From a virus: a stretch of DNA of 23,352 nt. Each line of letters starts with the position of its first letter. The first letter of the stretch is position 1. Location: the IMG/VR virus record IMGVR_UViG_3300009177_000467, positions 1 to 23,352 of that record, one strand, 5' to 3'. The position numbers and the translations under genes were made by a program. A model generated the notes under the pieces. The model was given only the letters and a program-made list of their open reading frames with translations, ran no database searches and was not told the origin of the DNA. Positions 5,044-23,352 of this stretch are shown here, one piece after another.

Positions 5044-5054
5044 GTGGGTCCTCA

Positions 5055-5067
5055 GTTAGTGACTAAC
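5055..5067. repeat. 13-bp palindrome copy 3 (junction)
   Basis: GTTAGTGACTAAC between the TGA of the 513-aa gene and the start at 5043; the SD GAGG lies between it and the ATG (11 nt). Confidence 0.9.
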
Positions 5068-5074
5068 TCAACTA

Positions 5075-6616: not shown

Positions 6617-6669
6617 GGGGTGTGGTGACTCCTTGGATAATTGTACACCCATTGGCGGGTGGGGTGGCG

Positions 6670-6682
6670 GTTAGTGACTAAC
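6670..6682. repeat. 13-bp palindrome copy 4 (junction)
   Basis: GTTAGTGACTAAC between the 84-aa gene and the 513-aa gene: 53 nt before the preferred ATG (6616), 17 nt before the alternative one (6652). Confidence 0.9.
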
Positions 6683-6698
6683 TGTAACTAATAGGTAC

Positions 6699-6953: not shown

Positions 6954-8370
6954 CCTCCTCGTTGGCTATGGTTAGGGCGAATACGAGACTGCCATCGCCG
7001 TGATTATTAGTATAGTTGGTCCAGTTGAAACCGGCGTGAACAAACGTCTGGTCCATGTCGATATCATCCTGCACAATGAGGGCACGTGGTATCTGCGCCA
7101 TCATCATCATGGGTTCTGCGTCGGTTGGCCACTTCCACCCAATAATGGGTACCATGGCCCCGTCGAGTTGGCCTACCGCCGCCACCTTGCACATGATGTT
7201 ACTGAACGGCGACTTCATCGTAAACAGTGAGATCCAGTTGTGGCCCCCGGTGCTGTCCAGGATTATGTAGTAGAACGACGAGTCGCAGCACATGGTGTAG
7301 TCAATGTGTTGGCCGTACCCCGGCATGGCTTGCAGGTTGTGGCGGAAGGTAATGCTACAGTAGTTTGCTCTAAAGTTGCCCATGGCAAAGAACATGCGTG
7401 AGTGACGTTTATAGGTCGCCCCCAGCCCGGTCCCGGCATTGTACCCGGCGACGTAGGTGCTGGCATTGAGATCGAGTACGGTGGGCGAGATGACGGTCAC
7501 TTGCCACGAACCATTCAAGGTGTTGATATACGACCCCCCAAATGTCGCTTGGTCTATGTAGAGGTTCTGCCCATCCCCCATGCCATGGTCACTGGCAAAC
7601 GTCACCCTGTAGTTATTCGTTGGGCTGGCCGTCACACTGGACACTACTAGCGGTTCCATGCCCTCGAACACAAACGGTACGCAGAAGTGCGCGAGGCAAC
7701 CGGCGGTGACAGCGGCCCCGCTCATCCAGGTAATAAACTGCTGGCCATCCGCACTAAACTTGAGTAGCCGTAGATTGATCACTGCCCACCAGTAGTATGG
7801 ACTATACGACTTCTTGTCCACTGAGAAACACCGCCACCGTATGTCCACCCCATCGGTGCTTATCTCGACTGCGGCACGTAGAGGTTGTACGTCACTGGTC
7901 GCACTGTAGAATAGATGGCCCCCGTAACGCCATAGAGTGAGGCCGATACGCGCGGTGTTCTTGGAGACGGGGATGTCGGCATGTACGCCGCTGGTGCGGT
8001 TGATAAGTTGGAACCACGCATTGTCACTGGTGTCTGCCACATCCCCACGGGTCGCGCCAACTAGTGGATCGACGGCGTTGATCTTGGCAATGGCGTTGTC
8101 GCGGGTGACGTAGAAGTTGGCATTAATGGCGATGTCATTCGCCCCTGTGGGGGTGGCCTTGAACGTGTAGACAGCAGCACCTATAGTTATGGTTGCGCCT
8201 TCGTTGGCGTTGAACCGGTCGATGGTAACGTCGAACCTCTCGTACAGGTTCTCGAAGTTAGTCCACCCAGCGTCAATGAGTGCCTGCCTAAACGCGGGTA
8301 TGGCAATGAGGACAGTAGACATGTCGATATCGCGGTAGACCAGTTCGCCCACGGGCATTCGCATCGACAT
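6841..8370 (-). CDS. Tail/receptor-binding-type structural protein, copy B (509 aa)
   Basis: Clear paralogue of the adjacent 491-residue gene: both start M-x-MRMP-(V/I)-G-x-LVYRDIDMS and share segments along the whole length (EGMEPL, HGMGDGQN, LNGSWQVT, CKVAAVGQLD, DDIDMDQTFVHAG). Residues about 245-310 resemble the ubiquitin-activating-enzyme E1 FCCH-type beta domain that recurs in phage tail proteins. Start chosen at 8370; GAAGGAG lies upstream with a palindrome copy filling the 13-nt spacer. The last ~37 residues (after ALTIANEE, residue 472) are Arg-rich, have no counterpart in the paralogue and overlap an 84-residue gene in another frame, so the C-terminus is doubtful. Probable tail fibre or appendage protein, by context and domain resemblance. 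Confidence 0.85.
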   Translation of the reverse strand: MSMRMPVGELVYRDIDMSTVLIAIPAFRQALIDAGWTNFENLYERFDVTIDRFNANEGATITIGAAVYTFKATPTGANDIAINANFYVTRDNAIAKINAVDPLVGATRGDVADTSDNAWFQLINRTSGVHADIPVSKNTARIGLTLWRYGGHLFYSATSDVQPLRAAVEISTDGVDIRWRCFSVDKKSYSPYYWWAVINLRLLKFSADGQQFITWMSGAAVTAGCLAHFCVPFVFEGMEPLVVSSVTASPTNNYRVTFASDHGMGDGQNLYIDQATFGGSYINTLNGSWQVTVISPTVLDLNASTYVAGYNAGTGLGATYKRHSRMFFAMGNFRANYCSITFRHNLQAMPGYGQHIDYTMCCDSSFYYIILDSTGGHNWISLFTMKSPFSNIMCKVAAVGQLDGAMVPIIGWKWPTDAEPMMMMAQIPRALIVQDDIDMDQTFVHAGFNWTNYTNNHGDGSLVFALTIANEEDAKRGLVPRTVRPPVARRDSSTGTPGLRRLTWPGHQR

Positions 8371-8371
8371 A

Positions 8372-8384
8372 GTTAGTTACTAAC
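8372..8384. repeat. 13-bp palindrome copy 5 (junction; contains stop)
   Basis: GTTAGTTACTAAC on the + strand (centre T). It holds the TAA of the upstream tail gene and ends 1 nt before the next ATG, filling the spacer after GAAGGAG. Confidence 0.9.
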
Positions 8385-9848
8385 TCCTTCGCCTGTCACG
8401 GCTGGTGGCGTTGGCGGTGCTGGTGGTGGGGCGGCAGCGGTGAGGGCAATGATCAATGCGCCACTATTGTCGTTATTGGTGTAGTTGATCCAATTGTGCC
8501 CAGCATGGACAAACGTCTGATCCATATCAATGTCGTCCTGTACCACGAGACACCTTGGCATCTGCCCCATCATCAGCTTGGGATCACTAATCGTCGGCCA
8601 GTTCCATGCGAGTATAGGTACCATCGCCGCATCCAACTGGCCGACTGCGGCAACCTTACACATAGTATTGGTATTGGCAGTCTTAAGTACCATGAGGGTG
8701 ACCAGCGACGTGCCGTAGACGTAACTCCCCGTATAGCTGTAGAAGCTCCCATCACAGCACACCACCTGCCCGTGCCCGGCCCCGCTCCAGCACTCGATGT
8801 TATGCCGAAAGCATGGCGTGTTCTGGTTCCAGGCGTTGTTGCCAATGCCATAGAATAGCCGTGAATGCCGCTTATAGGTTGCGCCAAAGCCCGTGCCCTG
8901 CGCGTAGAGAGTATCAAATACGCTGTTGTCGAGGTCCAGCACAGTGGGTGAGACGATAGTGACTTGCCAACTGCCATTCAGCCCACTGTCATAGGTGCCG
9001 TCCGATATGGCTTGATCTATAAATATGTTCTGGCCGTCGCCCATGCCGTGCTCGTTGGCAAAGGTAATGCGGGACCCGCCATCAGCGTTGGGTTCAACGG
9101 TGGCAATGGATAGCGGTTCCATACCCTCGAATACGAATGGGACACACGCATGGGCACAACACCCCTGGACAGTGGAGGAGGATAGGAGCCACGTGAAAAA
9201 CTGCTGGCCATCAATACTAATCTTGAGCATCCGCCCAGGCACGACATCCCAAAAGAAGTAGACACTGAAGGAGCTAAAATCCACGGGGCACATGCGCCAC
9301 CGCAGGTCATAGCCGTCGGCACTAAGTTCAATGCCTGCGCGTAACGGTTGCTCCGGCCCAGTGACACTAAAGAACGTGTAGCCCCCACCCATCCATGGGC
9401 CGTATACCTCCAGGTTCCCCCAGTAGTCGGTGGTGGCAATGGAGATGTTCATGTTCACCCCAGGAGTGAGGTTAATGAGGGTGATGCGATCTGTTGCGGT
9501 GCCGTCGATACTGCCCATGGCCGCATCCACCAGCGGGTCGTAGAGGGTGAGGTAGTTGACGCAGTTCTGCATCTGGATCTGGATCGTGGGACCCAGTGCA
9601 ATCTCCCATGGCAGGGTGGGGGTGTTGCGGAACGTGTACTTGGTGGAGGTCGCACCACGGCTTATGGTCAATGTTGCGCCATCGGTCAACCCACCCCTCC
9701 ACTTGAGGTCATGCTTCTCATATAGCATCCCCACCAGTTCCCACCCAGCGTCCACAAAGGCTTGGCCCAGGTTGTCAATGCCCACGATGATGTTGGACAT
9801 ATCTATATCCCGGTAGACGAGGGTGCCGATCGGCATACGCATTGCCAT
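8373..9848 (-). CDS. Tail/receptor-binding-type structural protein, copy A (491 aa)
   Basis: 491 residues, paralogue of the next gene downstream. The N-terminal block (MAMRMPIGTLVYRDIDMSNI) and C-terminal third are the most similar parts; residues about 60-200 diverge more. The middle carries the FCCH-like beta segment (ITFANEHGMGDGQ ... LNGSWQVTIVSPTVLDLD). A Pro-rich linker ends the protein (PPPAPPTPPAVTGEGVSN). The ATG directly follows a palindrome copy with AAGGA upstream of it, and the stop TAA lies inside the next copy. Two successive diverged copies suggest a heteromeric tail appendage or alternative receptor specificities. Virion role inferred from position and domain type. Confidence 0.87.
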   Translation of the reverse strand: MAMRMPIGTLVYRDIDMSNIIVGIDNLGQAFVDAGWELVGMLYEKHDLKWRGGLTDGATLTISRGATSTKYTFRNTPTLPWEIALGPTIQIQMQNCVNYLTLYDPLVDAAMGSIDGTATDRITLINLTPGVNMNISIATTDYWGNLEVYGPWMGGGYTFFSVTGPEQPLRAGIELSADGYDLRWRMCPVDFSSFSVYFFWDVVPGRMLKISIDGQQFFTWLLSSSTVQGCCAHACVPFVFEGMEPLSIATVEPNADGGSRITFANEHGMGDGQNIFIDQAISDGTYDSGLNGSWQVTIVSPTVLDLDNSVFDTLYAQGTGFGATYKRHSRLFYGIGNNAWNQNTPCFRHNIECWSGAGHGQVVCCDGSFYSYTGSYVYGTSLVTLMVLKTANTNTMCKVAAVGQLDAAMVPILAWNWPTISDPKLMMGQMPRCLVVQDDIDMDQTFVHAGHNWINYTNNDNSGALIIALTAAAPPPAPPTPPAVTGEGVSN

Positions 9849-9861
9849 GTTAGTGACTAAC
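9849..9861. repeat. 13-bp palindrome copy 6 (junction; contains stop)
   Basis: GTTAGTGACTAAC on the + strand. It holds the TAG of the 264-aa gene and abuts the ATG at 9848 directly; AAGGA lies upstream. Confidence 0.9.
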
Positions 9862-10651
9862 CATCCTTGACCATCGTGTATCGTATGTTGACCACAAGAT
9901 TTGCACCTGGGTAATCGGTGCCCACGTAACCTATACCTAGACGTAGGCGGTCCTCGCGTAACAAGGGCATGGGGTTGGCAATGAACGTGGCCTTGAACCC
10001 ACTGGTGGTCTTGTTAGGCAGAATAATTAGTGGCGCAGTAAGTAGTGGTACAGTCCAGGTGAGGCCGTGGTCATGGCTACGGTAGAATTGCAGGCGTATA
10101 TCCTGGCCAACCGGCGCATGTGACACTGATGCGATGTACTCGTACATGTCGATGTGATACTTATCGGGGCACGTGTTGACCCAATAGTATATCCCGTCCT
10201 CATCGCCGAGACCGTCATTGGTTTCCAGTAGGCCCGGGATGTTGAAGGTTGCACGCTCAACAAGGGACGCCGGGTCTGGGGGGATTGGTTCAAAGATGGA
10301 CTTCAATGTCCCGGTACATGGCACCCGTGGACTCTCGGCCTCGGTGGTGTGGTTGTAGGTCGATACAAATATACTATCCCCAGACAAGCCATCCTGTAGA
10401 AACGTCTGGTCACTAGGTACTTGGCGTACAATCTTGTCGTCCGCATCCCCCGGGCTGTAGATCCTAAAGTGCGTATACATCCCGGGGCTATCCGGGTGGG
10501 GCCGTTTCCATCGCATGATGGTGCCCTCAGCGGTGACCTCGCGTGGGGGTGCAGGCGTGACGCGGGACAGGCGTGCGGCGCGATCAAGCTCGGCGAGGTG
10601 CCGCTCGACCTGCCCACGTTGGCTCCATGTGTACCCACGACCGGTTGGCAT
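9857..10651 (-). CDS. Virion protein with fibronectin-III-like segment, 264 aa
   Basis: 264 residues. An N-terminal charged helix (QRGQVERHLAELDRAARL) is followed, at about residues 33-115, by a stretch with the look of a fibronectin type III fold (VTAEGTIMRWKRP, then HFRIYSP, then SDQTFLQDGL). The C-terminal half is beta-rich (DIRLQFYRSHDHGLTWTVP), as in phage fibre or carbohydrate-binding tips. No SD is evident; the ATG lies 4 nt after a palindrome copy, and the stop TAG is formed by the next copy. It sits between a membrane protein and two tail paralogues, so a tail-associated structural role is likely. The fold assignment is by eye and tentative. Confidence 0.8.
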   Translation of the reverse strand: MPTGRGYTWSQRGQVERHLAELDRAARLSRVTPAPPREVTAEGTIMRWKRPHPDSPGMYTHFRIYSPGDADDKIVRQVPSDQTFLQDGLSGDSIFVSTYNHTTEAESPRVPCTGTLKSIFEPIPPDPASLVERATFNIPGLLETNDGLGDEDGIYYWVNTCPDKYHIDMYEYIASVSHAPVGQDIRLQFYRSHDHGLTWTVPLLTAPLIILPNKTTSGFKATFIANPMPLLREDRLRLGIGYVGTDYPGANLVVNIRYTMVKDG

Positions 10652-10655
10652 GACG

Positions 10656-10668
10656 GTTAGTGACTAAC
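10656..10668. repeat. 13-bp palindrome copy 7 (junction)
   Basis: GTTAGTGACTAAC on the + strand. It shares its first coding-strand base with the TAG of the 66-aa gene and lies 4 nt before the ATG at 10651, which has no visible SD. Confidence 0.9.
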
Positions 10669-10868
10669 TACAGGGGCCGTCGAAATACTGTACCGCCACC
10701 GACACCAAGTTGGTGAGATAGAAACAGTAGTAGCACAATCAGCAGTACCCCACCAACGATCCACCTTATGGGTTGCGGCAGGTTGTACATTACGCACACA
10801 TAGTTCAATCCGTAGGCCACGATGGCGAACATGATGATGTAGACAATAAGCATTATCAACTGGTCCAT
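10668..10868 (-). CDS. Small two-helix membrane protein (holin candidate)
   Basis: 66 residues with two hydrophobic spans, about residues 3-25 (LIMLIVYIIMFAIVAYGLNY) and 35-53 (IRWIVGGVLLIVLLLFL), separated by a short loop with NLPQPIR. The start overlaps the previous stop as TAATG, so it is probably translationally coupled to the large gene before it. The design resembles small two-span phage membrane proteins often annotated as holin-like or of unknown function. No endolysin gene is visible in the window, so the lysis role is only a possibility; a virion or membrane-channel role in DNA entry is an alternative. Confidence 0.75.
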   Translation of the reverse strand: MDQLIMLIVYIIMFAIVAYGLNYVCVMYNLPQPIRWIVGGVLLIVLLLFLSHQLGVGGGTVFRRPL

Positions 10869-12949
10869 TACTGTAACCTGATCCTTCCTTTGGTTAGCAC
10901 AAACCCAATCTTACCTACAATACCCACCATGATTTTGGCCAGTGGCAACCGCCCGTATTCATACGAGGTGGGATACCATGTCTCTGTCGCATCTGCCACA
11001 AGGCGGGTACGTAGTTTCAAGTTGTACACAGACCCTAGTAGAGCTTTGCCGACCGACACCATGTAGTTGGCCGCACTAAACAGGGCAGTGGTCATGACGT
11101 TGGGTATGCCGGTCGCAGGCAGGGGTTCCTCGTGGTCGCGCCACGCATGGATGGATAGGTTGCCACTGCGTACATCGCCATGTATGTGGGTCTCGGCGAC
11201 ATTGCCAATACTGCTGGGGTCGCCAAAGTCTATCCAGTGCGTCTCATGCTCACCAGTGCGGCGTTGCGGAGTGACCACGCCACCAACCACTATGTCATCC
11301 TTGACCCGTTCCCTGCCCATGGGGTCATCCGGTTGGCCAGCACCAGTGAATATGTCCTTATTCGCGCAGATGTGATACTTGCGGCAGGACTGGTCCATGA
11401 GGGTACGGGCCGCATGGAAATCCCCATCCGCACTATACCCCTGACCGGTGACAAAGTCGTGTATCCATTCGGTGCCGTCAGTGAAAAATAACTCGTACCT
11501 GTCGATCATGTTGTTGGGATCGAGCGTGTGGGTGGCGGCACGGCTGGTCTTGCCACGCAACTTGTCCTGGTACGGGCGGGACAGGATTGAGATATTTGCG
11601 TTCTCGTCGAGGGCTACGATTTCCCCATTTTGCGTTTCCCAGATCGACCCGTGGGGGGTACGTGCACAGTAGGTGGCGGTGTTTTTGATCCCGTACCTGC
11701 CGGGAATTTCGGTGAAGGTGTGCCTTTCGTCGATGTCTTCAAAGACGATGAAGTTGGACGTTTCGGTGATGACATGGAGTGATTTACCCTCGGGTGATCG
11801 TGCGCCCCATATAGGTTGCTCGGTATTGGGGGTTGATTTGAAGTTATCCAGGGGGAACGCATGTTCCGGTGCCCCCAGGAAGAATGTCTCGCTTACGTCA
11901 GATGCTGCCGCAGACCAGACGATACCGGGGAGGTAATGGGTTGGCGGCACGTATGAGAAGTCAGGTAGCGATGGTGATGCCCCGGCCTCTGGTAACAGTG
12001 CCCCGTAGATACGGCCTTCGACAAAATCCACCCATCGCATAGGACGTGGTGGATGATTCTCTACCGGGGCCTCCTTGAATACGTCCAGGATGTAATTGGA
12101 AATAGTGTAACTGGTGTCGGTGATGTTGGCCATGAGCGGCATGGTGGGGTCAAGGGGGTCCATCATGAGGTACCCCACCTGGGCGTTCTTCAGATCGACT
12201 GTGCCGAAGAACACATACTTCTGTAGCCCTTGCTCATAGGGGCCGTGGTTGTGCATCTTGATGTTTTGCAGTCCACCAATGGTAATGCCCAGGTCCTCGC
12301 CAGCGGCCATGGTGCCGCATTTCACGACATTGGAGAAGTGGTAGGTACGGGTATTGAACAGGCCGACGTAGATGGTGACCTCGTTGACGATCTTGATCGC
12401 CCCACTGGTGGGTGTGGTAAACGGTGGCCCGGTCCAGATGGGCACAAAGCAGTCGAGACCTAGATATATCTGTTGGCCGTTGTCCACGCAGTAGAGGGTG
12501 AATGGCGGCATGGAGCCAAGGGAGCCGTCACGTACACCTAGCCCGTTGTATATGACGATGCCGTCGTCCACGTTGCAGATGGGTGCGGGGCGAGTTTGCG
12601 TGAAACTACCGCCATGGGTCTGGTCGATAGTGAGCACGTCCATCATGAACCAGTCGCCCAGGTGGATTTGAACCCACTTGACCACACTGCCGGTGACGTT
12701 TTGGCCAAGCTGGTTGAGGAACCCGGCGTAGAAGGGGTCGCGGTACTCGTGAAAGTACTTCCATAGGCCGGTACTGTATATTGCACGGGCAACGCGACCA
12801 CCAAATAGCCGTAGCCATAGGGTGCCGTCTACGCTGGGCATGACCCGGAAGTTATGGCAATGGGTGGCCGCTGGTGGCGGGGCAGACGGGTTCATTTGCG
12901 TAACCACGCCAGTGAGCGGTATATATGACGGGGGCTTGGAGTCAGCCAT
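10868..12949 (-). CDS. Large tail nozzle / DNA-stabilisation candidate, 693 aa
   Basis: 693 residues, beta-rich, with repeated segments of the kind seen in propeller-like tail hub proteins (for example SLHVITETSNFIVFEDIDER, then GIKNTATYCARTPHGSIW). It directly follows the adaptor candidate, the place of tail tubular protein B (T7 gp12) or of P22-like plug/stabilisation proteins, and its size is close to theirs. Start at 12949: AGGAG lies upstream and a palindrome copy fills the spacer, ending 1 nt before the ATG. The C-terminus (KIMVGIVGKIGFVLTKGRIR) is hydrophobic and basic. Assignment rests on order, length and beta-rich character, not on a recognised motif. Confidence 0.82.
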   Translation of the reverse strand: MADSKPPSYIPLTGVVTQMNPSAPPPAATHCHNFRVMPSVDGTLWLRLFGGRVARAIYSTGLWKYFHEYRDPFYAGFLNQLGQNVTGSVVKWVQIHLGDWFMMDVLTIDQTHGGSFTQTRPAPICNVDDGIVIYNGLGVRDGSLGSMPPFTLYCVDNGQQIYLGLDCFVPIWTGPPFTTPTSGAIKIVNEVTIYVGLFNTRTYHFSNVVKCGTMAAGEDLGITIGGLQNIKMHNHGPYEQGLQKYVFFGTVDLKNAQVGYLMMDPLDPTMPLMANITDTSYTISNYILDVFKEAPVENHPPRPMRWVDFVEGRIYGALLPEAGASPSLPDFSYVPPTHYLPGIVWSAAASDVSETFFLGAPEHAFPLDNFKSTPNTEQPIWGARSPEGKSLHVITETSNFIVFEDIDERHTFTEIPGRYGIKNTATYCARTPHGSIWETQNGEIVALDENANISILSRPYQDKLRGKTSRAATHTLDPNNMIDRYELFFTDGTEWIHDFVTGQGYSADGDFHAARTLMDQSCRKYHICANKDIFTGAGQPDDPMGRERVKDDIVVGGVVTPQRRTGEHETHWIDFGDPSSIGNVAETHIHGDVRSGNLSIHAWRDHEEPLPATGIPNVMTTALFSAANYMVSVGKALLGSVYNLKLRTRLVADATETWYPTSYEYGRLPLAKIMVGIVGKIGFVLTKGRIRLQ

Positions 12950-12950
12950 G

Positions 12951-12963
12951 GTTAGTCACTAAC
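12951..12963. repeat. 13-bp palindrome copy 8 (junction)
   Basis: GTTAGTCACTAAC on the + strand (centre C). AGGAG lies just upstream on the coding strand and the ATG at 12949 is 1 nt downstream, so the palindrome is the SD-to-start spacer. Confidence 0.9.
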
Positions 12964-12965
12964 TC

Positions 12966-13724
12966 CTAATTCGATCCCACCATGTGATGCCCACCGGGGG
13001 ATGCGGCCATGATTGGATTCAATGCCTCTAATGCCGCGTAGTATCGTTTCATGGACACGTCCAGCCTACTATCCTGGTTGCCGCTGGCACGATCCCCGTA
13101 GATGTAGGCGCGATGAAGTAGTACGAGTACAGGTATTAACTGGTTGGGTATGTACAGGGAGAGGTTGGTATCGGTCCACACGCCACTTGGGTGCGCTGGC
13201 AGTGGTGGGCGCTGCACGTAGACGAGACGCAGGACCAGACCGGCTATGGCGGGGCAGTTGAACACCATCACCTTGTAGTCGCCATCCGTGTCATCACCCA
13301 CTGGGATCTCGGCGGCGGTGGCGGCGGCGATGCGATAGGTTGACGGGTACCCACTCGCAGGCTTGGGGTAGTCGGCGTGATCGCCCCATTCGGTTACGGC
13401 GGCAATGGCCGGGATGTCGTGGCTGGGCGTAACCTCGTAGCCGAAGCCTGGGAACATGGTGCCCATGGGGGAGTTGGCCCCGGCGATAAAGGCCCCATGC
13501 GGCTTAATGGTCAGCACGTCGGGCGGCAGGACGATGCGGTTCTCATTGGCCGGTATGGGGATCGAGAAGGTCGTACTGCTAAAGTAACCAGCGCCATGCC
13601 GGTTGTACACGTCGGTCATGAACTGGGGCAGGATGTTATACCAAAACTGCCAATCATGTGGGTAGCCGCCGACAGCGATCTCATCGTAGTTGACTAGATT
13701 CTTCCAATAAGCTGAGTACAGCAT
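12966..13724 (-). CDS. Head-tail adaptor (tail tubular A-like) candidate, 252 aa
   Basis: 252 residues, starting MLYSAYWKNLVNYDEIAVGG. The N-terminal part is helical with aromatic residues (WQFWYNILPQFMTDVYNRHG), then comes a beta segment (FSIPIPANENRIVLPPDVL), and a late helical stretch (LIPVLVLLHRAYIYGDRASG) resembling adaptor proteins below the portal. GGAGG lies 12 nt before the ATG. The position after capsid and before the nozzle candidate fits a T7 gp11/P22 gp4-type adaptor. The 49-nt gap to the upstream gene has no copy of the palindrome. Moderately sure of function, sure of the gene. Confidence 0.82.
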   Translation of the reverse strand: MLYSAYWKNLVNYDEIAVGGYPHDWQFWYNILPQFMTDVYNRHGAGYFSSTTFSIPIPANENRIVLPPDVLTIKPHGAFIAGANSPMGTMFPGFGYEVTPSHDIPAIAAVTEWGDHADYPKPASGYPSTYRIAAATAAEIPVGDDTDGDYKVMVFNCPAIAGLVLRLVYVQRPPLPAHPSGVWTDTNLSLYIPNQLIPVLVLLHRAYIYGDRASGNQDSRLDVSMKRYYAALEALNPIMAASPGGHHMVGSN

Positions 13725-14672: not shown

Positions 14673-15911
14673 CTACCAGGGGGCGGTGTAGTCGGTGACG
14701 TTTTGCAGGACCCCGTGCTTCTTTTCGTGACGCACCTTGAGGCCGCATATCATACGGGTCTGGTCCACGATACGGCCAGCACCGTCCTTGATCACATCCT
14801 CCATGACCGTGGGTTCACCATACGAGAAGCCATTCCCCTGGAGGAAGACGATCTCCACGTTGGCGAAGTCCACGGCAAACGCGATGTGACCAAAGCCGCG
14901 AGTTTGACCCGTGAGCGTCTCGAGGGTCTTGTCATGGATGAGCCGCAAGTCGCCAAAGCCGGTCTGCACCATGCGGGTCTTGATGCCGAACATCTTCTCC
15001 GTTGGCCCCACCATCATAAACTGGTGCTGCCAAGCGTTGATCGCATTGATAACAATCGCTGGGCAAATGAGGCCCATCTCGGACCCCGAGTCATGGTATT
15101 GGAACACCCGCTCGACGAAGCCAAGGAACCCCTTGTACGTGAGTAGTCCACCAGCATCTACCACGTTGGTTACGATCTCGCTGCGCAACCCGGCCATGGT
15201 CCGCATCTCGCCGTTGACGTCATTGAGATCCTGTGACGCCTTCCCCCAGTAGGCGGTACGGTTGTAGTCCAGCTTCATCTCGTTCATCATCTTGGACTGC
15301 AACTCATCGCGCAGCCCTTGGGGTGAGGCGTACTGGGCACTCGCAGCCTGTTCCAAGGTGATGCGCTTGGTCTTGCTGAAGTGCTGCATGTACGTCTGCT
15401 TGGTCATCGAGATGGTGGACTTGCTGTCTGGCGCAGCCGCACCTTCGTTCATGGCCGGGCCGTTGATTGACAAGGCAGAACCGCTGGCAATGGCCGCAGG
15501 AGTCGTACCGGCAAACCCACGTACCACGGTGATGATGTTGGTCACCGGGTTGTTGGCCGTGACACGTACTAGCTCACCCATGGCGACGGTGGCATTGGCC
15601 GGTGGGAAGTACAGCACATCCCCGGGGACGACCAACTTGCTGTCAACCAGGGTGAACGCGGTGGCGATACCGTCTGCGACAGCGGCTGCCGTAATCACCC
15701 ATTGCGCCATCCAGTCATCCTCTTTCCACTCGATGAGGGTGCTGGACTGGCCCTTTTTTCTGGACTTCTTCAGCCCCTCCACGAGCAATGTCGTCAGTGG
15801 GGCGATGTCAGGACGTATGAGCATGGCGTCTACGCCGACGACGCGGATATTATCGGACGCGGCAAACATCTGCTGGGTGTGGCGATTACCCAGTGCATAA
15901 CCTAAAGGCAT
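14673..15911 (-). CDS. Major capsid protein, SU10/DUF5309-like HK97 fold
   Basis: 412 residues. The N-terminal block (PLTTLLVEGLKKSRKKGQSS then TLIEWKEDDW) is the pattern of SU10-type capsid proteins. Residues about 90-165 hold the inserted beta region typical of that family (GDVLYFPP, GELVRVTA, ITVVRGFAGTTPAAIASGSA), followed by an EGAAAPDS-type turn. The C-terminal half has the family's helical spine and long beta strands (MNEMKLDYNRTAYWGK; GLICPAIVINAINAWQHQFM). AGGGAG lies 9 nt before the ATG. It directly follows the scaffold gene, the usual order. It would assemble into the procapsid shell with the upstream scaffold. The end may be extended by -1 frameshifting into the following frame. 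Confidence 0.92.
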   Translation of the reverse strand: MPLGYALGNRHTQQMFAASDNIRVVGVDAMLIRPDIAPLTTLLVEGLKKSRKKGQSSTLIEWKEDDWMAQWVITAAAVADGIATAFTLVDSKLVVPGDVLYFPPANATVAMGELVRVTANNPVTNIITVVRGFAGTTPAAIASGSALSINGPAMNEGAAAPDSKSTISMTKQTYMQHFSKTKRITLEQAASAQYASPQGLRDELQSKMMNEMKLDYNRTAYWGKASQDLNDVNGEMRTMAGLRSEIVTNVVDAGGLLTYKGFLGFVERVFQYHDSGSEMGLICPAIVINAINAWQHQFMMVGPTEKMFGIKTRMVQTGFGDLRLIHDKTLETLTGQTRGFGHIAFAVDFANVEIVFLQGNGFSYGEPTVMEDVIKDGAGRIVDQTRMICGLKVRHEKKHGVLQNVTDYTAPW

Positions 15912-16004: not shown

Positions 16005-17235
16005 CAAAGATGCTGGTCGATTTGTTGGCGGCAATGCGGAGGCGCTCGGCGTCCGGGTTGGCGAACCGACGTTGACCATTGGCGGCAGTGGCAGTACCAT
16101 TACCACCCCCTGCGCCTGCGGCACGTTTAGCCAGGATAGATGCGGCGGCAGCTTTGGCAGCACTGGAGACAGTGGTACCCTTTTTCACTAGTGCTGCTGC
16201 GGCCTTAACCTTGGCCACCCGGCCCTGAGCATTGGCATTAGCCTTGGCGGTACGAGGCGCGAGATCATGGGCGAGACGGATGCGATCAATCTCGTGCAAT
16301 ACTGCGCGTCGGTCGGCTGGGAGATCAGCGTATTCTGGATTCTCACCCAACCGGTTCACCCTGGCAATAATGGCTGGATTGGCGCGAAGAACAGCTTGAT
16401 ACGTGGAACTGCCGTCTTTCGAGGGCTTTACAAATTCGGCGATATCGGGGTCTGTCTTCTCCAGCTTGGCAAGCTGTACTATAGCAGAACGTTCGGCGGC
16501 TTGTCTAGTGCGGAATTGCGAGGCACTTTTGTTGAGGTTGTCGAACTGCGCGAGGCGGGGTTCGACGTCAGCGAGGAGTTGCTCCCGCAGGTAGTTGAGT
16601 ACTGTTGGCGACTTGAGATTGAATACGAGGTCTTTGGCAAACTCGTAACGGCGATGTTCACGGAGTTCCTCAAAAGCTCTACGCCGCTGTGGCTCACTGA
16701 GACGGGCATCGAGTGAGTCACTGTAGAGTTGGGCCTCGGCTGTGTAGTGCAATGCGGGGTCGAGCACAATCGGGTCGGCATCACCAGCGGGGATGGGGGC
16801 GCGAGTAGACTGTGGGGGTGCAGTGGTGGCGGTATCGCTGGCCTTGGCCCGGGCAGTGCGGACTTCACGCTCGATCTCAGTTAGGGTCGAGTCATCCTGT
16901 GGCTGGGCAACTGGGGTGGACGCCTCGCTCTCAGCGAGTTGGGCAATGACTTCCTCGATGATTTGTGCCTGTTTCGCCGTGAGATTCGCGGGGTCATAGC
17001 CCATCTCGTCGGCGATGGCAGCACGATGCTCCTGGTCGGCGGTGGGCTGTGCCGCCTCGCCCTCGCCGTCGATTGGGTCAACTACCGGTGCCGCCTCGCC
17101 ATCCTCGTCCTGGGCGTCGGGGTTGCTGGACGACTCATCCGGGTCCTCTATGATGTTGGGTTCATCGTTGCCGACCGACTTGATCTCGTCCATGGTGGCG
17201 GTGCCGGTGGGTGCGCCGAAGGTTTGCATAGCCAT
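16000..17235 (-). CDS. Capsid scaffolding protein candidate
   Basis: 411 residues. The first ~90 are strongly acidic (IIEDPDESSSNPDAQDEDGE), the middle is helical and charged (YEFAKDLVFNLKSPTVLNYL; a segment LRANPAIIARVNRLGENPEY), and the last third is Ala/Lys-rich and basic. This polarity, together with the position between portal and capsid genes, is typical of internal scaffolds of podoviruses. AAGGAG lies 12 nt before the ATG at 17235; a second in-frame ATG follows 6 nt later. The stop TAG is formed by a palindrome copy. No protease motif seen. Function by context and composition. Confidence 0.82.
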   Translation of the reverse strand: MAMQTFGAPTGTATMDEIKSVGNDEPNIIEDPDESSSNPDAQDEDGEAAPVVDPIDGEGEAAQPTADQEHRAAIADEMGYDPANLTAKQAQIIEEVIAQLAESEASTPVAQPQDDSTLTEIEREVRTARAKASDTATTAPPQSTRAPIPAGDADPIVLDPALHYTAEAQLYSDSLDARLSEPQRRRAFEELREHRRYEFAKDLVFNLKSPTVLNYLREQLLADVEPRLAQFDNLNKSASQFRTRQAAERSAIVQLAKLEKTDPDIAEFVKPSKDGSSTYQAVLRANPAIIARVNRLGENPEYADLPADRRAVLHEIDRIRLAHDLAPRTAKANANAQGRVAKVKAAAALVKKGTTVSSAAKAAAASILAKRAAGAGGGNGTATAANGQRRFANPDAERLRIAANKSTSIFG

Positions 17236-17700: not shown

Positions 17701-19849
17701 TCGGTGGGCCTCCTTTGCCCATTGCCCCCATGAGGGCTTCCATTGGATTGCCGCCACCCGCACCCTCGGCCCCGGGTTCGGGCTGTGGCTTGATTAGTCT
17801 ACCAATATCCTTGCCCTTGCCCATGGCCTTGAGGACATCCTTGATCGCCTCATCCATGCGGACGACATCGGGGTTCTCCTTGGCCAGCGTATATATCAAC
17901 TGGGCCTCGTTGACCTTGTTCATCTTGGCGTCGGGGAACATCGACGTAGAGTCTACAATGATCTCCCCGTCATCCTCGTAGTCCTCTGGTTCCATGGTCA
18001 CCATGGAGGTTTCGACGTCTTCCAGTTTCGCCGACTGTCCACCCATGAGGTGATAATGGCCAAGGTCGAGGGAGAGATCTTCGTTCAACTCACTGCGTAG
18101 CAACTCGCGCATCATCTCGCAGTCATCGCCGATCTTCTTGACGAACATGGACGTCGTCTGCCCAGCGAGTACGGCGGTGTTGCGGTCCATGATCTTGGCA
18201 CCAGTGGCAGTGTTGCTCTGTTGAGGGGCCAACTCGGCCATGCTGCTTAGACTGCTATCACCTGTGGTGGATTGAATCAGCTTCATTGCCGACTCATCAC
18301 TGTTCATGCTGGACAGCGCACTGGCAATGGCTGGACCCGATTGCTCGAAACCAAAGGATTTACCGCCGCCACGGGTGTAGACCACACGGAAGCCGGAAGT
18401 ATTTCTGGTAAAGAACTCGGGGTTGGACCATAGGGCAGCATCGTCTGTCCAGAGTAAGGGACGGGATATGGCATCAATGAGATCGTGGCGTTGAAAGAAT
18501 GACTGGGCATACATGTCAGCGAGTGAGACAATATGGTGCGCGGGACTCTCGCCGGGACCGCCAAGGATGCTGTCTACGATGCGTAGTTCGGTGCGTGCCA
18601 CCTTGCCATCACCGATTAGGTATGGGTAGTAGAAGTGGCCAAGCCAGATGTTGTCGCACTTGTACTCAACAGTCGCATCCTCACCACCATGCCCTGGGTA
18701 CTCGATTTTATGCACGCCCCAGCGGACCTCGATGTCGTCGGCGTAGGTGCCCTCGTTGCTGGGGTGGGTGGAGGCGCTACGCTTGACGAGGTTGTAGAGG
18801 TTGCCGCGCAGGCGTTCACTCTGACTGCCAATTGCACGCACGTCGCCGTTGGGCTTGTCGTCCATGACGGCCTGGATGCGGCGTGCGAGGTCCGGGTCAT
18901 ATTCGCCATTAGGTAATTTATGCCGCTCGTATAGCTCCTGGAACCACTCGATGCCGACCCGCATGTACTCGCCCACATACGCGCATGTCCCCAGGGTGTC
19001 GAACTCGGGTTCGGGGAAGATGTCGCCGGGGAACGTGTACTTGACACTGGGGCCGACGTACCCGCGCTCGTCGTAGATGATACGTAGCCGCCCCTTATGG
19101 CCATATGTCTGTGCCAATACTGGTATCGCTTGTAATGCGACCTCATCCATGGCCTCCTGGTCGTTTGGGTCGATGCTGGCGCTGGTGGCAATGTCCTCGA
19201 TGATTGGCACAAGCTGTGGCTCGTAGGTGTCCAGTACGGCGAGGATCATGTCGTCAGTCATGCGCTCTGGACGGACGAGGCGCACCCGCTTGATAATGGT
19301 GTCGTCCCAGCCCCAGCTATTGGGACCCCAGCCGGTGATCCACGCACTGGTTAACGTCTTATTCACTACCCGGGACTTGCGTTGCGCCTTGTCATAGAAA
19401 TACATGTACGACGCCGAGAGCTTGTCGGCACGCTCAGTGTTGCGGGACCGGCAAGTGATTACTGGTACGTTGGCGTTGACCCGGGCGACCATGCGCTGGC
19501 AGGCATTCCACAGCACGGGCAGACCGTCTGTCCTATCTTGTCTCTTTATGCGGGTCGCCGCCTGCCGCAATATGGCCACACTATCACTGGCGAATGCCCC
19601 ATCCATGGTACTGGGGGTGGCAAGGGTGGGGTCGTTGAGGACCTGGGGTTTGCGGTAACCACTGTAGGATTCCCACGTCTTCTCCCACACCGGCCAGTAG
19701 TTATTCTCCAGCCATGACTCACTGCGCTGAATACGGTCGTCCATGTTACGGGCGCGGTCGGCGTCGTGGTCACCAGTGGAGAAATCGACATTACCACTGG
19801 GTATATATGGCCCACCTCCGGCGACGTCAACTTGTTCTTGCGTGGTCAT
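17495..19849 (-). CDS. Portal protein
   Basis: 784 residues, large for a portal and in the range of podoviral ones. The N-terminal ~100 residues are charged; residues about 110-200 (WNACQRMVARVNANVPVITC, WITGWGPNSWGW) and 440-560 (SLADMYAQSFFQRHDLIDAI, FRVVYTRGGG, TTGDSSLSSMAELAPQQSNT) look like the clip/stem region of this type, where a Ser/Thr-rich helix precedes a turn. The last ~90 residues are a Pro/Gly/Asn-rich tail shared in coding space with the next gene. AAGGAG lies 7 nt before the ATG, just after a palindrome copy, and the start is 23 bases inside the terminase gene. It would form the dodecameric DNA entry ring. Gene order (TerL, portal, scaffold, capsid) supports the call. Confidence 0.88.
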   Translation of the reverse strand: MTTQEQVDVAGGGPYIPSGNVDFSTGDHDADRARNMDDRIQRSESWLENNYWPVWEKTWESYSGYRKPQVLNDPTLATPSTMDGAFASDSVAILRQAATRIKRQDRTDGLPVLWNACQRMVARVNANVPVITCRSRNTERADKLSASYMYFYDKAQRKSRVVNKTLTSAWITGWGPNSWGWDDTIIKRVRLVRPERMTDDMILAVLDTYEPQLVPIIEDIATSASIDPNDQEAMDEVALQAIPVLAQTYGHKGRLRIIYDERGYVGPSVKYTFPGDIFPEPEFDTLGTCAYVGEYMRVGIEWFQELYERHKLPNGEYDPDLARRIQAVMDDKPNGDVRAIGSQSERLRGNLYNLVKRSASTHPSNEGTYADDIEVRWGVHKIEYPGHGGEDATVEYKCDNIWLGHFYYPYLIGDGKVARTELRIVDSILGGPGESPAHHIVSLADMYAQSFFQRHDLIDAISRPLLWTDDAALWSNPEFFTRNTSGFRVVYTRGGGKSFGFEQSGPAIASALSSMNSDESAMKLIQSTTGDSSLSSMAELAPQQSNTATGAKIMDRNTAVLAGQTTSMFVKKIGDDCEMMRELLRSELNEDLSLDLGHYHLMGGQSAKLEDVETSMVTMEPEDYEDDGEIIVDSTSMFPDAKMNKVNEAQLIYTLAKENPDVVRMDEAIKDVLKAMGKGKDIGRLIKPQPEPGAEGAGGGNPMEALMGAMGKGGPPNGKPQQSSPAGPQPQQGPANTNPTNPNPAGPKPNGFPPPPPAGAPPIPGTGGPELEGQLSSMGGAPLA

Positions 19850-21683
19850 GGCTGGACTCCTTGTTAGTGACTAACACTGGGGCAGTAAACTGGTTGGCGA
19901 TGACGTAGCGGTTGCTGGCCATCATCTCGGTGTAGAATATGTTACCACTAAGCAGGTAGCGGGTATTGTCCAGCATGTGGGTGCGGAACTGCGATACACG
20001 CTGGTTGAGGTCCTTTGACAATGACGTACTCGTCGTGGCGTAGCGGTGATTGCGAAATTCAGCACGGAGTTCCAGTAGGGATTCTGCGATAAATAGGCGT
20101 GGCCGAGTAGTATTACGCCACACCTTGGGTTCCAGTAGCTCGTCGATCTTGTCATTACCAACCGCATGTGACTTGCGCGGGTCCTGGCAGTAGATGCCAT
20201 ACTTGCGGTACTCGTCATAGATGAATAGGTCCGGGGTGCCCTCACCACTAATGCGAAACCCCTTGCCTGCCTGGTCCATAAGACGAGATACGATCCTCTC
20301 GCCACCATCGCGATGAGTGTACTGGTACATTTCATACGGGGTACCGGGGCTGGTGGCCACTATCTCATTACCCTCTACAAAAGCTATATACTCTGCGTAT
20401 GTACGGACAGTATAACGGTTACATTCATCTTCATCTCGGAGACGCCGTCCAGTGCCGTAAACGTTACTGGGCCAGGATTCGCGGTAAAAGTAGAAGTCGT
20501 AGTCTCTAGTAACCAGCAGCCAAAGGGCCGCGTGTTCGGTGCGTGGATGAGGATCAATGGACATGTATAGACAGCCGTATTCGGGGATGTCGCGGTCGGG
20601 GATGACGTGGATTTGCTCATTGTATTTGGGGTGGACTAGTGCGCCGCCCAGGGCCTCGGCGTCGATCTCCATCTCACGTTTCCACATGGGCGATCCCATG
20701 CCACCGAAGACCTTGGCAACCCGTTTGAGTTTCGCGGGGTCGCGCATCGACGGGTCGCAACTGTAGTGGACCCGTATAAATACCCAGCCCTGTGGCGAGA
20801 GGTGCTTGGTTAGCCCTGGTATTGGCCCGGTGACGTCATTGCTCGTCATCCCCTGTGGGGTTGGTACCTGTAAACCAGATAGTCCAACTTGTGCAAGACT
20901 GCCATGGTCGAAAAGGTGAGTGTAGGAGTACAAGTCCTGGTGTAGAAGTGGGTTGTACGACCACGGGATCTGCTTGCACTCTTTCCATATCTCGTTGAGT
21001 GGACCCGGCTTGGCTGTGGCGATCAGCCAGATGAATGGCGTTTTGGCGGCGAGAGCATTGGTGACGCATTCTAGTAACTCTCCCTCTAGGGATGCTTCGT
21101 CAAAGATGTAGACGGTGCCGTGCTCGAAACGTATCTTGTCACTGCCACTGGCAAAGGCGGCGGCGCTACTGCCATTAGGTAGGTTGCACTCGGCGTAGGA
21201 TTGCGAGAATAGATCGAGGGTCAGGTCGCCCAGCCACTTACCCTTGAGGCGGTCGGTGCTATTCATGAGTAGCACCTTGATCTTTTCTATAATCTTGGCG
21301 GCGCGGGGTTGGTCAGCGGATTGGACAATGACACGGGTGTCGGGCTGGGTCGCCATCATGTGGGCGGCGAGACCGGCGGCAGTCCACGACATCATCAACG
21401 TGCGCGATTTGTATGTCGCGTGGATGAGTGACTCACCTTTGGGTGGACGTGTCATCAGGTCCTCGGCGATGTAGTCGAAGTACGGCGACAGGGGGAAGGG
21501 CTTGCGGCTGTTGGCGTCCTGTTCATCCACTGTCCTGGTGCCGTTGCGGAGCCAGAACATGGCCGACTTTGGGGTGTTGATATTGGATTCCCTGTATATC
21601 AACTCATCGGTTAGCTCGGCGATGTCGGCGGCGAGTTTGACGTTGGCTAGGTTAGGTAGTGGAACAAATGTGGGTGTGGCCAT
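19827..21683 (-). CDS. terL: Terminase large subunit
   Basis: 618 residues. The ATPase has a variant Walker A at about 89-97 (ATYKSRTLM), a Walker B with acidic pair at 191-196 (VYIFDE) and a coupling-type segment at 221-227 (IATAKPG). The nuclease half starts with a beta strand carrying Asp377 (YMSIDPHP), with further acidic residues at DLFIYDEY (about 485-492) and in the late NDKIDELLEP segment. This two-domain order is that of the packaging motor that cuts and pumps DNA through the portal. The ATG lies 4 nt after a palindrome copy and lacks a clear SD. Its 3' end runs through another copy (LVTN, residues 604-607) and overlaps the portal start by 23 bases. Confidence 0.92.
   Translation of the reverse strand: MATPTFVPLPNLANVKLAADIAELTDELIYRESNINTPKSAMFWLRNGTRTVDEQDANSRKPFPLSPYFDYIAEDLMTRPPKGESLIHATYKSRTLMMSWTAAGLAAHMMATQPDTRVIVQSADQPRAAKIIEKIKVLLMNSTDRLKGKWLGDLTLDLFSQSYAECNLPNGSSAAAFASGSDKIRFEHGTVYIFDEASLEGELLECVTNALAAKTPFIWLIATAKPGPLNEIWKECKQIPWSYNPLLHQDLYSYTHLFDHGSLAQVGLSGLQVPTPQGMTSNDVTGPIPGLTKHLSPQGWVFIRVHYSCDPSMRDPAKLKRVAKVFGGMGSPMWKREMEIDAEALGGALVHPKYNEQIHVIPDRDIPEYGCLYMSIDPHPRTEHAALWLLVTRDYDFYFYRESWPSNVYGTGRRLRDEDECNRYTVRTYAEYIAFVEGNEIVATSPGTPYEMYQYTHRDGGERIVSRLMDQAGKGFRISGEGTPDLFIYDEYRKYGIYCQDPRKSHAVGNDKIDELLEPKVWRNTTRPRLFIAESLLELRAEFRNHRYATTSTSLSKDLNQRVSQFRTHMLDNTRYLLSGNIFYTEMMASNRYVIANQFTAPVLVTNKESSHDHARTS
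19863..19875. repeat. 13-bp palindrome copy 12 (end of terL, before portal)
   Basis: GTTAGTGACTAAC on the + strand, read as LVTN (residues 604-607) at the end of terL and placed 13 nt before the portal ATG, just ahead of its AAGGAG. Confidence 0.9.
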
Positions 21684-21687
21684 TGCG

Positions 21688-21700
21688 GTTAGTCACTAAC
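21688..21700. repeat. 13-bp palindrome copy 13 (junction; contains stop)
   Basis: GTTAGTCACTAAC on the + strand (centre C). It supplies the TAA of the small-terminase candidate, 4 nt before the terL ATG, which has no clear SD. Confidence 0.9.
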
Positions 21701-22333
21701 TGGTGTGACGTCGATGACGCCTTTAACACCACTGGCGCGTAGTGTGCCGCCAGCTTGTTGGACTAATTCTACCAGACGCAGGCGTAGTTCATCAGTGGAC
21801 AATGCTGCCAACTTATCGCCGATCTCATGCTCCACTATAGCCTTAGATGGATGATTCGCCCCTAGGGTGTCGAGTAACTTGGCCGCAGCAGTGATACGGG
21901 TGCGGTGATCGGGCGTAAAGTGGGGGTTACCTTCCCTGTCATACGTGACACGTTCCGCATTCATGCCGTCGTCGATGACCGCGAACGCCTTGGCTATACG
22001 CACCCCCACCAGTGCTGCGGCCTCCTGGGCCTTGACATACATGGCCCGTTCCATGGTCGCCCTGGCAATGATGGTGCCCTTGCGGATACGGGACCGTATG
22101 TAATTGGATAGATCGACCTCGGGGATGGCGAAGCGGATGGCTACGGCGGCAATGTACTCGTCGATGTTGTCGCTAGTTGGTGGGTAGGCGGCGGCGAAGT
22201 CGTCAACGAGGCGGGTCCATGGGGGAACAGGTTGCCCAGGAGGGATGCTGTCGGCAGTATGGTCGATACCGTTGACGGCAGTGGCCGTGGCGTTCCCGTT
22301 CCCCTGTCTATTATTGCGTAGGTTGAGAGCCAT
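21689..22333 (-). CDS. Terminase small subunit candidate
   Basis: Start taken at the ATG at 22333 (MALNLRNNRQ); a TTG two codons upstream is possible, and neither has a clear SD. The ~214-residue product has a disordered, Pro-containing N-terminus, a helical centre (SRIRKGTIIARATMERAMYV; AAALVGVRIAKAFAVIDDGM) and a C-terminal helical part (LSTDELRLRLVELVQQAGGT). Position just before terL and the helical make-up fit the DNA-recognition subunit of the packaging motor, but I see no unmistakable helix-turn-helix. The stop TAA is supplied by a palindrome copy. Confidence 0.7.
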   Translation of the reverse strand: MALNLRNNRQGNGNATATAVNGIDHTADSIPPGQPVPPWTRLVDDFAAAYPPTSDNIDEYIAAVAIRFAIPEVDLSNYIRSRIRKGTIIARATMERAMYVKAQEAAALVGVRIAKAFAVIDDGMNAERVTYDREGNPHFTPDHRTRITAAAKLLDTLGANHPSKAIVEHEIGDKLAALSTDELRLRLVELVQQAGGTLRASGVKGVIDVTPVSD

Positions 22334-22347
22334 ACGCAAGTATCATA

Positions 22348-22629
22348 TCAATAGCGGCCATCGTGGGTGATTGCACTATTGCAGTCCATGCGTGCCTCGC
22401 GTAACTTGCGTATGGCGGCACTACGGTCAGGCCCGGCGGGGACAGTGCGGATGATGAGTTTCACTGCGTTGGCCAGTACCTCACGTACCCTACTGCCCTG
22501 CTCGACCTGTACGTCGTTCCAACGGTGGTACGTGAACATGTCGTCCACAGTGGTGTCTACCAGTTCCGCCTGGGCCTCGGCGTGGGCGGGGCGGACAGTG
22601 TTTAGGTTCAAGACGGACGCGGGTTCCAT
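22348..22629 (-). CDS. acb2: Acb2/Tad1-hairpin family protein (probable anti-CBASS sponge)
   Basis: 93 residues. The second half matches the family pattern as I know it: FTYH near residue 32, then a Q..R..VREVLANAVKLI helix, VPAGPDRSAAIRKLREARMD, and a closing NSAI. Known Acb2 proteins of this size bind cyclic di- and trinucleotides and so block CBASS defence; the related Tad1 binds the Thoeris signal. Acting in the cytoplasm of the infected cell, it would shield the phage during assembly. AAGGAG lies 7 nt before the ATG, with a palindrome copy upstream. It is unusual only in its setting just before the terminase genes. Family call from sequence pattern; ligand and activity are inferred. Confidence 0.8.
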   Translation of the reverse strand: MEPASVLNLNTVRPAHAEAQAELVDTTVDDMFTYHRWNDVQVEQGSRVREVLANAVKLIIRTVPAGPDRSAAIRKLREARMDCNSAITHDGRY

Positions 22630-22644
22630 TGCGGTTCTCCTTGG

Positions 22645-22657
22645 GTTAGTGACTAAC
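22645..22657. repeat. 13-bp palindrome copy 14 (junction)
   Basis: GTTAGTGACTAAC on the + strand. It shares a base with the TAG of the 145-aa gene and lies 15 nt before the Acb2-like start, followed by AAGGAG. Confidence 0.9.
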
Positions 22658-23094
22658 TAGGCGTTTTTGCCAAATACCAGTTCCTGGTGGACGACCATCT
22701 TGGGTCCTAGTTCCACTTCGCCAGTGCCAACGTCATACATATAGGTGCGGCCATAGAGGTCAGGCCCCTGCTTGTAGGCGACGTGGGTTGGCGTCATGGC
22801 CTCGATCTCACAATACTCGTACATGCCCCCGCAGGACGACACGTCATCGCCACCCTTGCCCTTAGCCTTTTTAGACTTGGCCTGCGCCCTTGCCTCTTCC
22901 ATCAGGGCCTCGTGGACCTTCTCGGTCTTGGTGGCGAGGTTCTCCCTGTCCGTGATACGGACGTTAGAGGCGTTGGACGTGGACGCACGCTTGGCCTCCT
23001 TGCGCTCGGCACTGTACTTCTCGGCCTTGGTGCCGGTTGGCTTCAGGCCGAGATACAGCGTGCGCTCGTTCATGTCCATCGTGCTGGTGGGCAT
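22657..23094 (-). CDS. Unknown charged 145-aa protein
   Basis: 145 residues. The first ~70 are very Lys/Glu/Ala-rich and probably helical (TKAEKYSAERKEAKRAST; HEALMEEARAQAKSKKAKGK), with a Lys/Gly-rich joint. The C-terminal half is a compact beta-like domain (MYEYCEIEAMTPTHVAYKQG, then GRTYMYDVGTGEVEL) with two Cys. AGGAG lies 9 nt before the ATG. The stop TAG shares its last base with a palindrome copy. No family recognised; it lies just upstream of the Acb2-like gene. Confidence 0.75.
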   Translation of the reverse strand: MPTSTMDMNERTLYLGLKPTGTKAEKYSAERKEAKRASTSNASNVRITDRENLATKTEKVHEALMEEARAQAKSKKAKGKGGDDVSSCGGMYEYCEIEAMTPTHVAYKQGPDLYGRTYMYDVGTGEVELGPKMVVHQELVFGKNA

Positions 23095-23161
23095 GTAATG
23101 GTACTCCTAGGCTGTAGAGTACACGATAGTGACACGGGATGTCAACTGGTATTTGAGACGG

Positions 23162-23352
23162 CTAGGCTTGGTTAGTGACTAACTCCAGCATGGGATGCGT
23201 CAACTTGGATACTAGATCACCCAGCCACTCGGCGTCGGCGACACGTACTGGAGTCGCTGATTCTATTGCGGTTGCGAGTGCTTTGGCCTCTTCGTTTTCC
23301 AGCGGTATGTCCTTCGCCCCGTAGTTGGGGCTGGGCAATTTCCACCCAAACT
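23162..23352 (-). CDS. Unknown protein, C-terminal end only
   Basis: Minus-strand frame entering at the right edge and ending at the TAG at 23162-23164; about 62 residues are seen (FGWKLPSPNYGAKDIPLENE, then SATPVRVADAEWLGDLVSKL). The last residues are LELVTNQA, where LVTN is read through a palindrome copy. Codon choice matches the neighbours. No function can be given from this fragment; it precedes the charged 145-residue gene by about 70 bases. Confidence 0.6.
   Translation of the reverse strand, partial: FGWKLPSPNYGAKDIPLENEEAKALATAIESATPVRVADAEWLGDLVSKLTHPMLELVTNQA
23171..23183. repeat. 13-bp palindrome copy 15 (end of right-edge gene)
   Basis: GTTAGTGACTAAC on the + strand, read as LVTN close to the end of the right-edge gene and 76 nt before the start at 23094. 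Confidence 0.9.

What the first reader, a model, noticed from the sequence alone, without database searches (positions are those of the whole stretch)
22348..22629. Acb2/Tad1-like anti-defence protein placed just before the terminase genes
The 93-residue product fits the Acb2/Tad1 hairpin pattern (FTYH, helical Q..R..VREVL, RSAAIRKLREARMD, N.AI). Acb2 proteins sequester CBASS cyclic nucleotides. Here it is embedded in the late packaging operon with its own SD and palindrome, suggesting co-expression with virion genes, late in infection when CBASS usually fires.
Basis: partly seen in the sequence, partly recalled or inferred. Interest (0 to 1): 0.62.

Follow-up and report, generated by a model that had tools for sequence, protein, structure and literature searches.

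The report
Acb2/Tad1-like sponge in a swap slot
A phage from uncultured, largely soil-type communities carries, in a swappable slot just ahead of its DNA-packaging genes, a small protein distantly but clearly related to the Acb2/Tad1 'sponges' that soak up bacterial alarm nucleotides; it is a new branch of a known kind, and its ligand is untested.

Summary
The ORF is real: 93 aa, minus strand, 22348-22629, with a Shine-Dalgarno sequence. Alone it misses the Pfam PF24729 (Acb2_Tad1_hairpin) cut-off (16.4 vs 27 bits), but its relatives settle homology. An HMM from eight family members, including T4 Vs.4 (=Acb2), scores it 52.9 bits; 10,000 shuffles reach at most 12.2. Profile-profile E is 4e-13. 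The AlphaFold2 model (pLDDT 91) is a helical hairpin whose best viral fold matches are almost all 'Acb2/Tad1 hairpin' proteins. Its clade keeps Vs.4's Tyr8 (Y34), has Arg for Lys23 (R49, invariant) and small residues at three of Vs.4's hexamer contacts. It lacks Vs.4's H11, R79 and F82, so ligand choice probably differs.

Best explanation: a nucleotide sponge against CBASS- or Thoeris-type signalling; ligand binding and hexamer formation are inferred. It is an accessory cassette: relatives 84-96% identical in terminase lack it, three have a precise empty site, and others carry an HNH-endonuclease-like gene or a 45-aa ORF there. Terminase adjacency is not typical of the family. The 'own palindrome' is one of 15 copies of GTTAGTNACTAAC, a lineage-specific repeat, mostly near gene starts, that may be the more unusual feature here.

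The parts
22348..22629 (-). 93-aa gene, divergent Acb2/Tad1 hairpin protein (stop codon included)
22637..22642 (-). Shine-Dalgarno AAGGAG, 7 nt before the ATG
   Evidence: read from the sequence
22352..22643 (-). 292-nt accessory cassette, absent at the empty site of L040, L054 and L058
   Evidence: alignment to the empty sites, 52 nt downstream identical; other occupants in other relatives
22645..22657 (.). 13-nt palindrome GTTAGTGACTAAC at the upstream edge of the cassette; one of 15 copies in the window
22657..23094 (-). 145-aa gene of unknown function, upstream neighbour, conserved in relatives
21689..22333 (-). downstream gene in the small-terminase position (likely ATG at 22333)
   Evidence: position and conservation only; no profile match
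19827..21683 (-). large terminase subunit, 618 aa
   Evidence: phrog_5989 E 2.4e-4; 19 related loci

Best explanation
The gene encodes a divergent member of the Acb2/Tad1 hairpin superfamily, most likely a nucleotide 'sponge'. Copies would assemble through their helical hairpins into an oligomer (a hexamer in T4 Vs.4) and hold a cyclic-nucleotide alarm signal in pockets between subunits, so that CBASS- or Thoeris-type effectors are not triggered. It sits in a swappable accessory slot between an unknown 145-aa gene and the terminase genes, is probably co-transcribed with them, and has its own ribosome-binding site. Shown here: homology, predicted monomer fold, conservation of part of the pocket and hexamer-contact residues, and precise presence/absence in relatives. 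Inferred: oligomer, ligand, target defence, timing.
For: HMM of eight family members scores the protein 52.9 bits versus at most 12.2 in 10,000 shuffles; HHalign 97.9%, E 3.7e-13; 27 of 28 clade and bridging sequences match PF24729. Model pLDDT 91 with the short N-helix and two long helices of Acb2 (layout in PMC10419184); 17 of the 19 best viral fold matches are annotated Acb2/Tad1 hairpin. Y34 and R49 align with Vs.4 Y8 and K23, A72/A79/C83 with hexamer contacts A66/A73/A77 (Vs.4 residues from PMC10097602). Accessory behaviour: precise empty site, alternative occupants, absence from 15 relatives' contigs.
Against: Below Pfam's curated cut-off as a single sequence. Vs.4's H11, R79 and F82 correspond to W37, S85 and T88. 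Foldseek E-values are modest and the PDB search listed no solved Acb2. No binding, oligomer or phage-defence evidence; host and its defences unknown.
Confidence: 0.62

Rival explanations
1. It has the Acb2/Tad1 hairpin fold, but this clade binds a different small ligand or signal, through a pocket remodelled around W37, R49, the DR..IRK.R motif and the T-H-x-G-K/R-Y tail, rather than the known CBASS or Thoeris signals.
For: Clade-specific invariant residues W37, D68, R69, R74, K75, R77, D82, N84, S85, G91; H11, R79 and F82 of Vs.4 not kept.
Against: F82 and R79 are also missing from other PF24729 members aligned here, so their loss alone does not signal a new ligand; Y34 and R49 are kept.
Confidence: 0.18
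2. It is a Tad1-type sponge that mainly captures the Thoeris signal gcADPR.
For: PF24729 includes the Tad1 hairpin; solved Tad1 chains rank after the Acb2 homologue in profile searches, below significance.
Against: Tad1 carries an N-terminal antiparallel beta-sheet (PMC12043709); the 93-aa model is all helical.
Confidence: 0.08
3. It is a packaging or head-assembly accessory protein (for example a terminase partner) that happens to have a helical hairpin.
For: Location directly upstream of the terminase genes; close to terminase in G017, G024 and G025 and in Arthrobacter phage Jasmine.
Against: Relatives with 84-96% identical terminase lack it, with a precise empty site; most family members are far from terminase or on the other strand; sequence homology is to Acb2/Tad1.
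Confidence: 0.07

Closest known systems
Acb2 / Vs.4 of phage T4 (PDB 7UQ2; PMC10097602)
   Same: PF24729 hairpin domain; small single-domain protein of 88-93 aa; Tyr8 equivalent Y34, Lys23 equivalent R49, small residues at hexamer contacts A66, A73, A77
   Different: About 16% identity; no F82, R79 or H11 equivalents; shorter hairpin (Vs.4 has an insertion); gene placed among packaging genes here, while vs.4 lies among the tk/vs/regB genes in T4
Acb2 homolog 43 (PDB 9PTQ)
   Same: Best solved relative by profile (6.6e-6, 2e-6)
   Different: About 23% identity; its ligand was not looked up here
Tad1, Thoeris anti-defence 1 (PDB 7UAV, 8KBB and others)
   Same: Shares the hairpin domain; weak sequence match over the AI.KL.E..M stretch
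   Different: Tad1 has an added N-terminal beta-sheet domain (PMC12043709), absent here
PHROG 1454 and PHROG 31113
   Same: Direct significant matches of the single window protein (4e-8 and 2.5e-7); ChisanaKitsune gp20 and contig L031 members match the same PHROGs
   Different: No function annotated in PHROGs v4

Membership tests
PF24729 Acb2/Tad1 hairpin superfamily | Significant sequence homology to family members | tested here: met
   52.9 bits to an HMM of eight members versus 12.2 maximum in 10,000 shuffles; HHalign E 3.7e-13
PF24729 Acb2/Tad1 hairpin superfamily | Single-protein score above Pfam's curated cut-off (27 bits) | tested here: not met
   16.4 bits, E 0.011. A curation threshold rather than a biological feature; bridging relatives L028, L030 and L031 pass it
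PF24729 Acb2/Tad1 hairpin superfamily | Two long antiparallel helices preceded by a short helix | tested here: met
   AlphaFold2 model, helices 21-32, 39-62, 67-88; viral fold matches
Acb2 (anti-CBASS 2) | cGAMP stacking and polar contacts Y8 and K23 of Vs.4 | tested here: met
   Y34 kept in nearly all, R49 (conservative for Lys) invariant in the aligned clade
Acb2 (anti-CBASS 2) | cGAMP contacts H11, R79 and F82 of Vs.4 | tested here: not met
   W37, S85 and T88 at these places; R79 and F82 are also not kept in other PF24729 members aligned
Acb2 (anti-CBASS 2) | Homohexamer | not testable with these tools
   Only single chains can be predicted; contact positions A72, A79 and C83 are small, but Vs.4 L29 is A55 here
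Acb2 (anti-CBASS 2) | Binds CBASS cyclic oligonucleotides and protects phage from CBASS | not testable with these tools
   Needs biochemistry and a phage assay
Tad1 (Thoeris anti-defence 1) | N-terminal antiparallel beta-sheet domain before the hairpin | tested here: not met
   93-aa all-helical model, no strands

The most novel reading that the evidence does not exclude
This clade (31 viral-contig loci plus six genome-contig loci, five of them in Acidobacteriota MAGs) is a sponge subfamily with a remodelled pocket that captures an immune nucleotide signal not handled by known Acb2 or Tad1 proteins, and in this phage it travels as a cassette placed directly at a lineage-specific palindrome next to the packaging genes.
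Probability: 0.15. Interest if true: 0.65.

Novelty: new member of a known kind. Interest (0 to 1): 0.34.

Why it matters
It extends a known counter-defence family into a clade from uncultured phages that the Pfam cut-off misses, so the reach of nucleotide sponges is probably undercounted. The precise empty site and the alternative occupants show that such a gene can be exchanged within the packaging block, which names a place to look for other accessory, possibly anti-defence, genes in this lineage.

Tried and rejected
Single-sequence PDB searches with the window protein and two relatives gave only chance matches. Foldseek and VIA-align against the PDB gave only generic helical hairpins; that a solved Acb2 was not listed does not show the folds differ. 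PADLOC and NCBIfam gave nothing meaningful. Conserved terminase adjacency was rejected: of the contigs with both genes mapped, only G017, G024 and G025 have them within about 1 kb. An equivalence between PaMx33 Acb2 R67 (recalled from memory as a trinucleotide contact) and R69 here was considered and dropped because the alignment is ambiguous there. No sigma-70 promoter was found in 19800-23352. Several primary Acb2/Tad1 papers are not held. A search by phylum failed on its handle, so the host of the window phage was not identified. Literature and phage-record searches for the palindrome found nothing.

Full report
What is there. The 93-codon ORF lies at 22348-22629 on the minus strand, ATG at 22629; the plus strand has stops there in that frame. 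AAGGAG sits 7 nt before the ATG. The neighbours on the same strand are, upstream, a 145-aa gene of unknown function (22657-23094) and, downstream, a 216-aa ORF in the small-terminase position (likely ATG at 22333), a 618-aa large terminase (phrog_5989, E 2.4e-4), a 784-aa gene in the portal position (no profile match) and a major capsid protein at 14673-15911 (phrog_1328, 3e-12). The window is a 23,352-base virus record.

Is it Acb2/Tad1-like? The single protein scores 16.4 bits against PF24729 Acb2_Tad1_hairpin (cut-off 27; E 0.011) over essentially the full 58-position profile, but matches the unannotated phrog_1454 at 4e-8 and phrog_31113 at 2.5e-7. Thirty-one viral-contig loci encode relatives. 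Of 28 sequences aligned (A1), 27 match PF24729, and four contigs carry copies over the cut-off; G008 has two copies, one strong (72.5 bits) and one of the divergent kind. To test homology with less circularity I separated the divergent clade (25 sequences, A4) from eight family members including T4 Vs.4 (A5). HHalign gives 97.9%, E 3.7e-13. An HMM of the eight scores the window protein at 52.9 bits and every clade member at 35 or more, against a maximum of 12.2 among 10,000 shuffled sequences. Caveat: two of the eight (L030, L031) were found by their similarity to the window protein, but both pass Pfam's cut-off by themselves.

Fold. [quoted passage not shown] PMC10419184). In the viral library 17 of the 19 best matches are annotated 'Acb2/Tad1 hairpin domain-containing', mostly with probability 0.97-1.00, though E-values are modest (best 1.1e-3). 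The PDB structure search gave nothing specific. By sequence profile the best solved relative is 'Acb2 homolog 43', 9PTQ (6.6e-6; 2e-6 with A5); solved Tad1 chains come next but below significance.

Pocket. Jenson et al. (PMC10097602) report that Vs.4 is a hexamer holding three cGAMP, with stacking by Y8 and F82, polar contacts by Y8, H11, K23 and R79, and hexamer contacts at L29, A66, A73 and A77. In alignment A3 the binding residues Y8, H11, K23, R79 and F82 map to Y34, W37, R49, S85 and T88, and the hexamer contacts to A55, A72, A79 and C83. Y34 is kept in nearly all clade members, R49 and A72 in all, and position 83 is C, A or S. H11, R79 and F82 are not kept; R79 and F82 are also absent from the other family members aligned. 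Thus the scaffold and part of the dinucleotide site look preserved, while the rest is rebuilt around clade-specific invariant residues (W37, D68, R69, R74, K75, R77, D82, N84, S85, G91). I read this as a nucleotide sponge of uncertain specificity. Ligand binding and oligomerisation are not shown.

A swappable cassette. Nineteen loci of close relatives were found with the terminase protein, 85-96% identical in the best segment (84.6-96.4%). Between the 145-aa gene and the gene in the small-terminase position, L040, L054 and L058 have an empty site; L048, L049 and L055 also show no gene there, though their flanks are more diverged; L042, L050, L053 and L057 carry a 208-aa protein matching endonuclease VII / HNH endonuclease PHROGs (5.9e-18 for the L042 copy); L044 and L051 (and, from matching gap lengths, L045 and L046) carry a 45-aa ORF (phrog_2423). 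Against L040, L054 and L058 the window has a clean 292-nt insertion (22352-22643) that begins one base after the palindrome and ends at the hairpin gene's last codon, with 52 nt downstream identical. No PF24729 match occurs anywhere in 15 relatives' contigs, three of them 65-67 kb. The gene is therefore dispensable in this lineage and exchanged, as expected of an accessory anti-defence gene and unlike a core packaging part. In the wider family the gene usually lies kilobases from the terminase and often on the other strand; only G017, G024 and G025 have it within about 1 kb. In bacterial genome contigs six relatives were found: five in Acidobacteriota MAGs (two Bryobacteraceae contigs of one isolate, one Solibacteraceae, two labelled Acidobacteria) and one betaproteobacterial; a phage of the acidobacterium Tunturiibacter also has a member. 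This hints at hosts for the clade, not for the window phage.

The palindrome. GTTAGTNACTAAC occurs 15 times in the window (0.23 expected), 10 copies within 40 nt of a start codon and 12 within 100, and 43, 39 and 27 times in the three 65-67 kb relatives, with none for the reversed control pattern. In those genomes it is less tightly linked to starts by my crude ORF calls (26 of 43 and 13 of 27 within 100 nt). In IMG/VR a palindrome-plus-SD pattern is found mainly in contigs already reached through the terminase. It recalls the start-associated sequences of cluster K mycobacteriophages (PMC3203893), which are 13-bp and gene-start-linked, but those are asymmetric and confined to the non-structural half; here the element is palindromic and lies among structural genes too. 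An operator for a DNA-binding protein or a seam for module exchange are both possible; neither was tested.

Verdict. The family assignment is right at superfamily level. The function, an immune-signal sponge, is the best guess at about 0.6. Late expression and CBASS as the specific target are unproven.

Noticed in passing
window 794, 2945, 5055, 6670, 8372, 9849, 10656, 12951, 14535, 15992, 17258, 19863, 21688, 22645, 23171 (13 nt each): Palindrome GTTAGTNACTAAC, 15 copies (0.23 expected), mostly just before minus-strand gene starts, sometimes so close to the ATG that no separate Shine-Dalgarno fits; 27-43 copies per 65-67 kb relative and largely confined to this lineage. Function unknown; not found in the literature library.
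   Followed up: partly
window 22329-22341 and 22404-22416: Perfect 13-nt inverted repeat: codons in the hairpin gene (AIRK region) can pair with the start of the downstream gene, which has no clear Shine-Dalgarno; predicted RNA stem z-score -2.15. It could couple translation of the two genes, or be chance.
   Followed up: partly
L042:1397-2023, L053:4021-4647, L050:4690-5316, L057:4702-5328: The same slot in relatives holds a 208-aa endonuclease VII / HNH-like gene, suggesting the slot also receives mobile endonuclease genes.
   Followed up: partly
L010:6001-6198 and 6719-6916; G008 16922-17083 and 20265-20438; G019 1464-1628 and 42966-43130: Some phage contigs carry two Acb2/Tad1-hairpin genes, in G008 one divergent and one strong family member.
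   Followed up: no
L039:3001-3216 (Paenibacillus phage Halcyone): Family members in Paenibacillus and Brevibacillus phages are annotated 'putative phosphomannomutase', probably a propagated misannotation.
   Followed up: no
window 2-13724: Large minus-strand ORFs of 250-1014 aa downstream of the capsid gene; those scanned have no PHROG match at 0.01 (the 1014-aa ORF was not scanned). A poorly sampled phage group.
   Followed up: no
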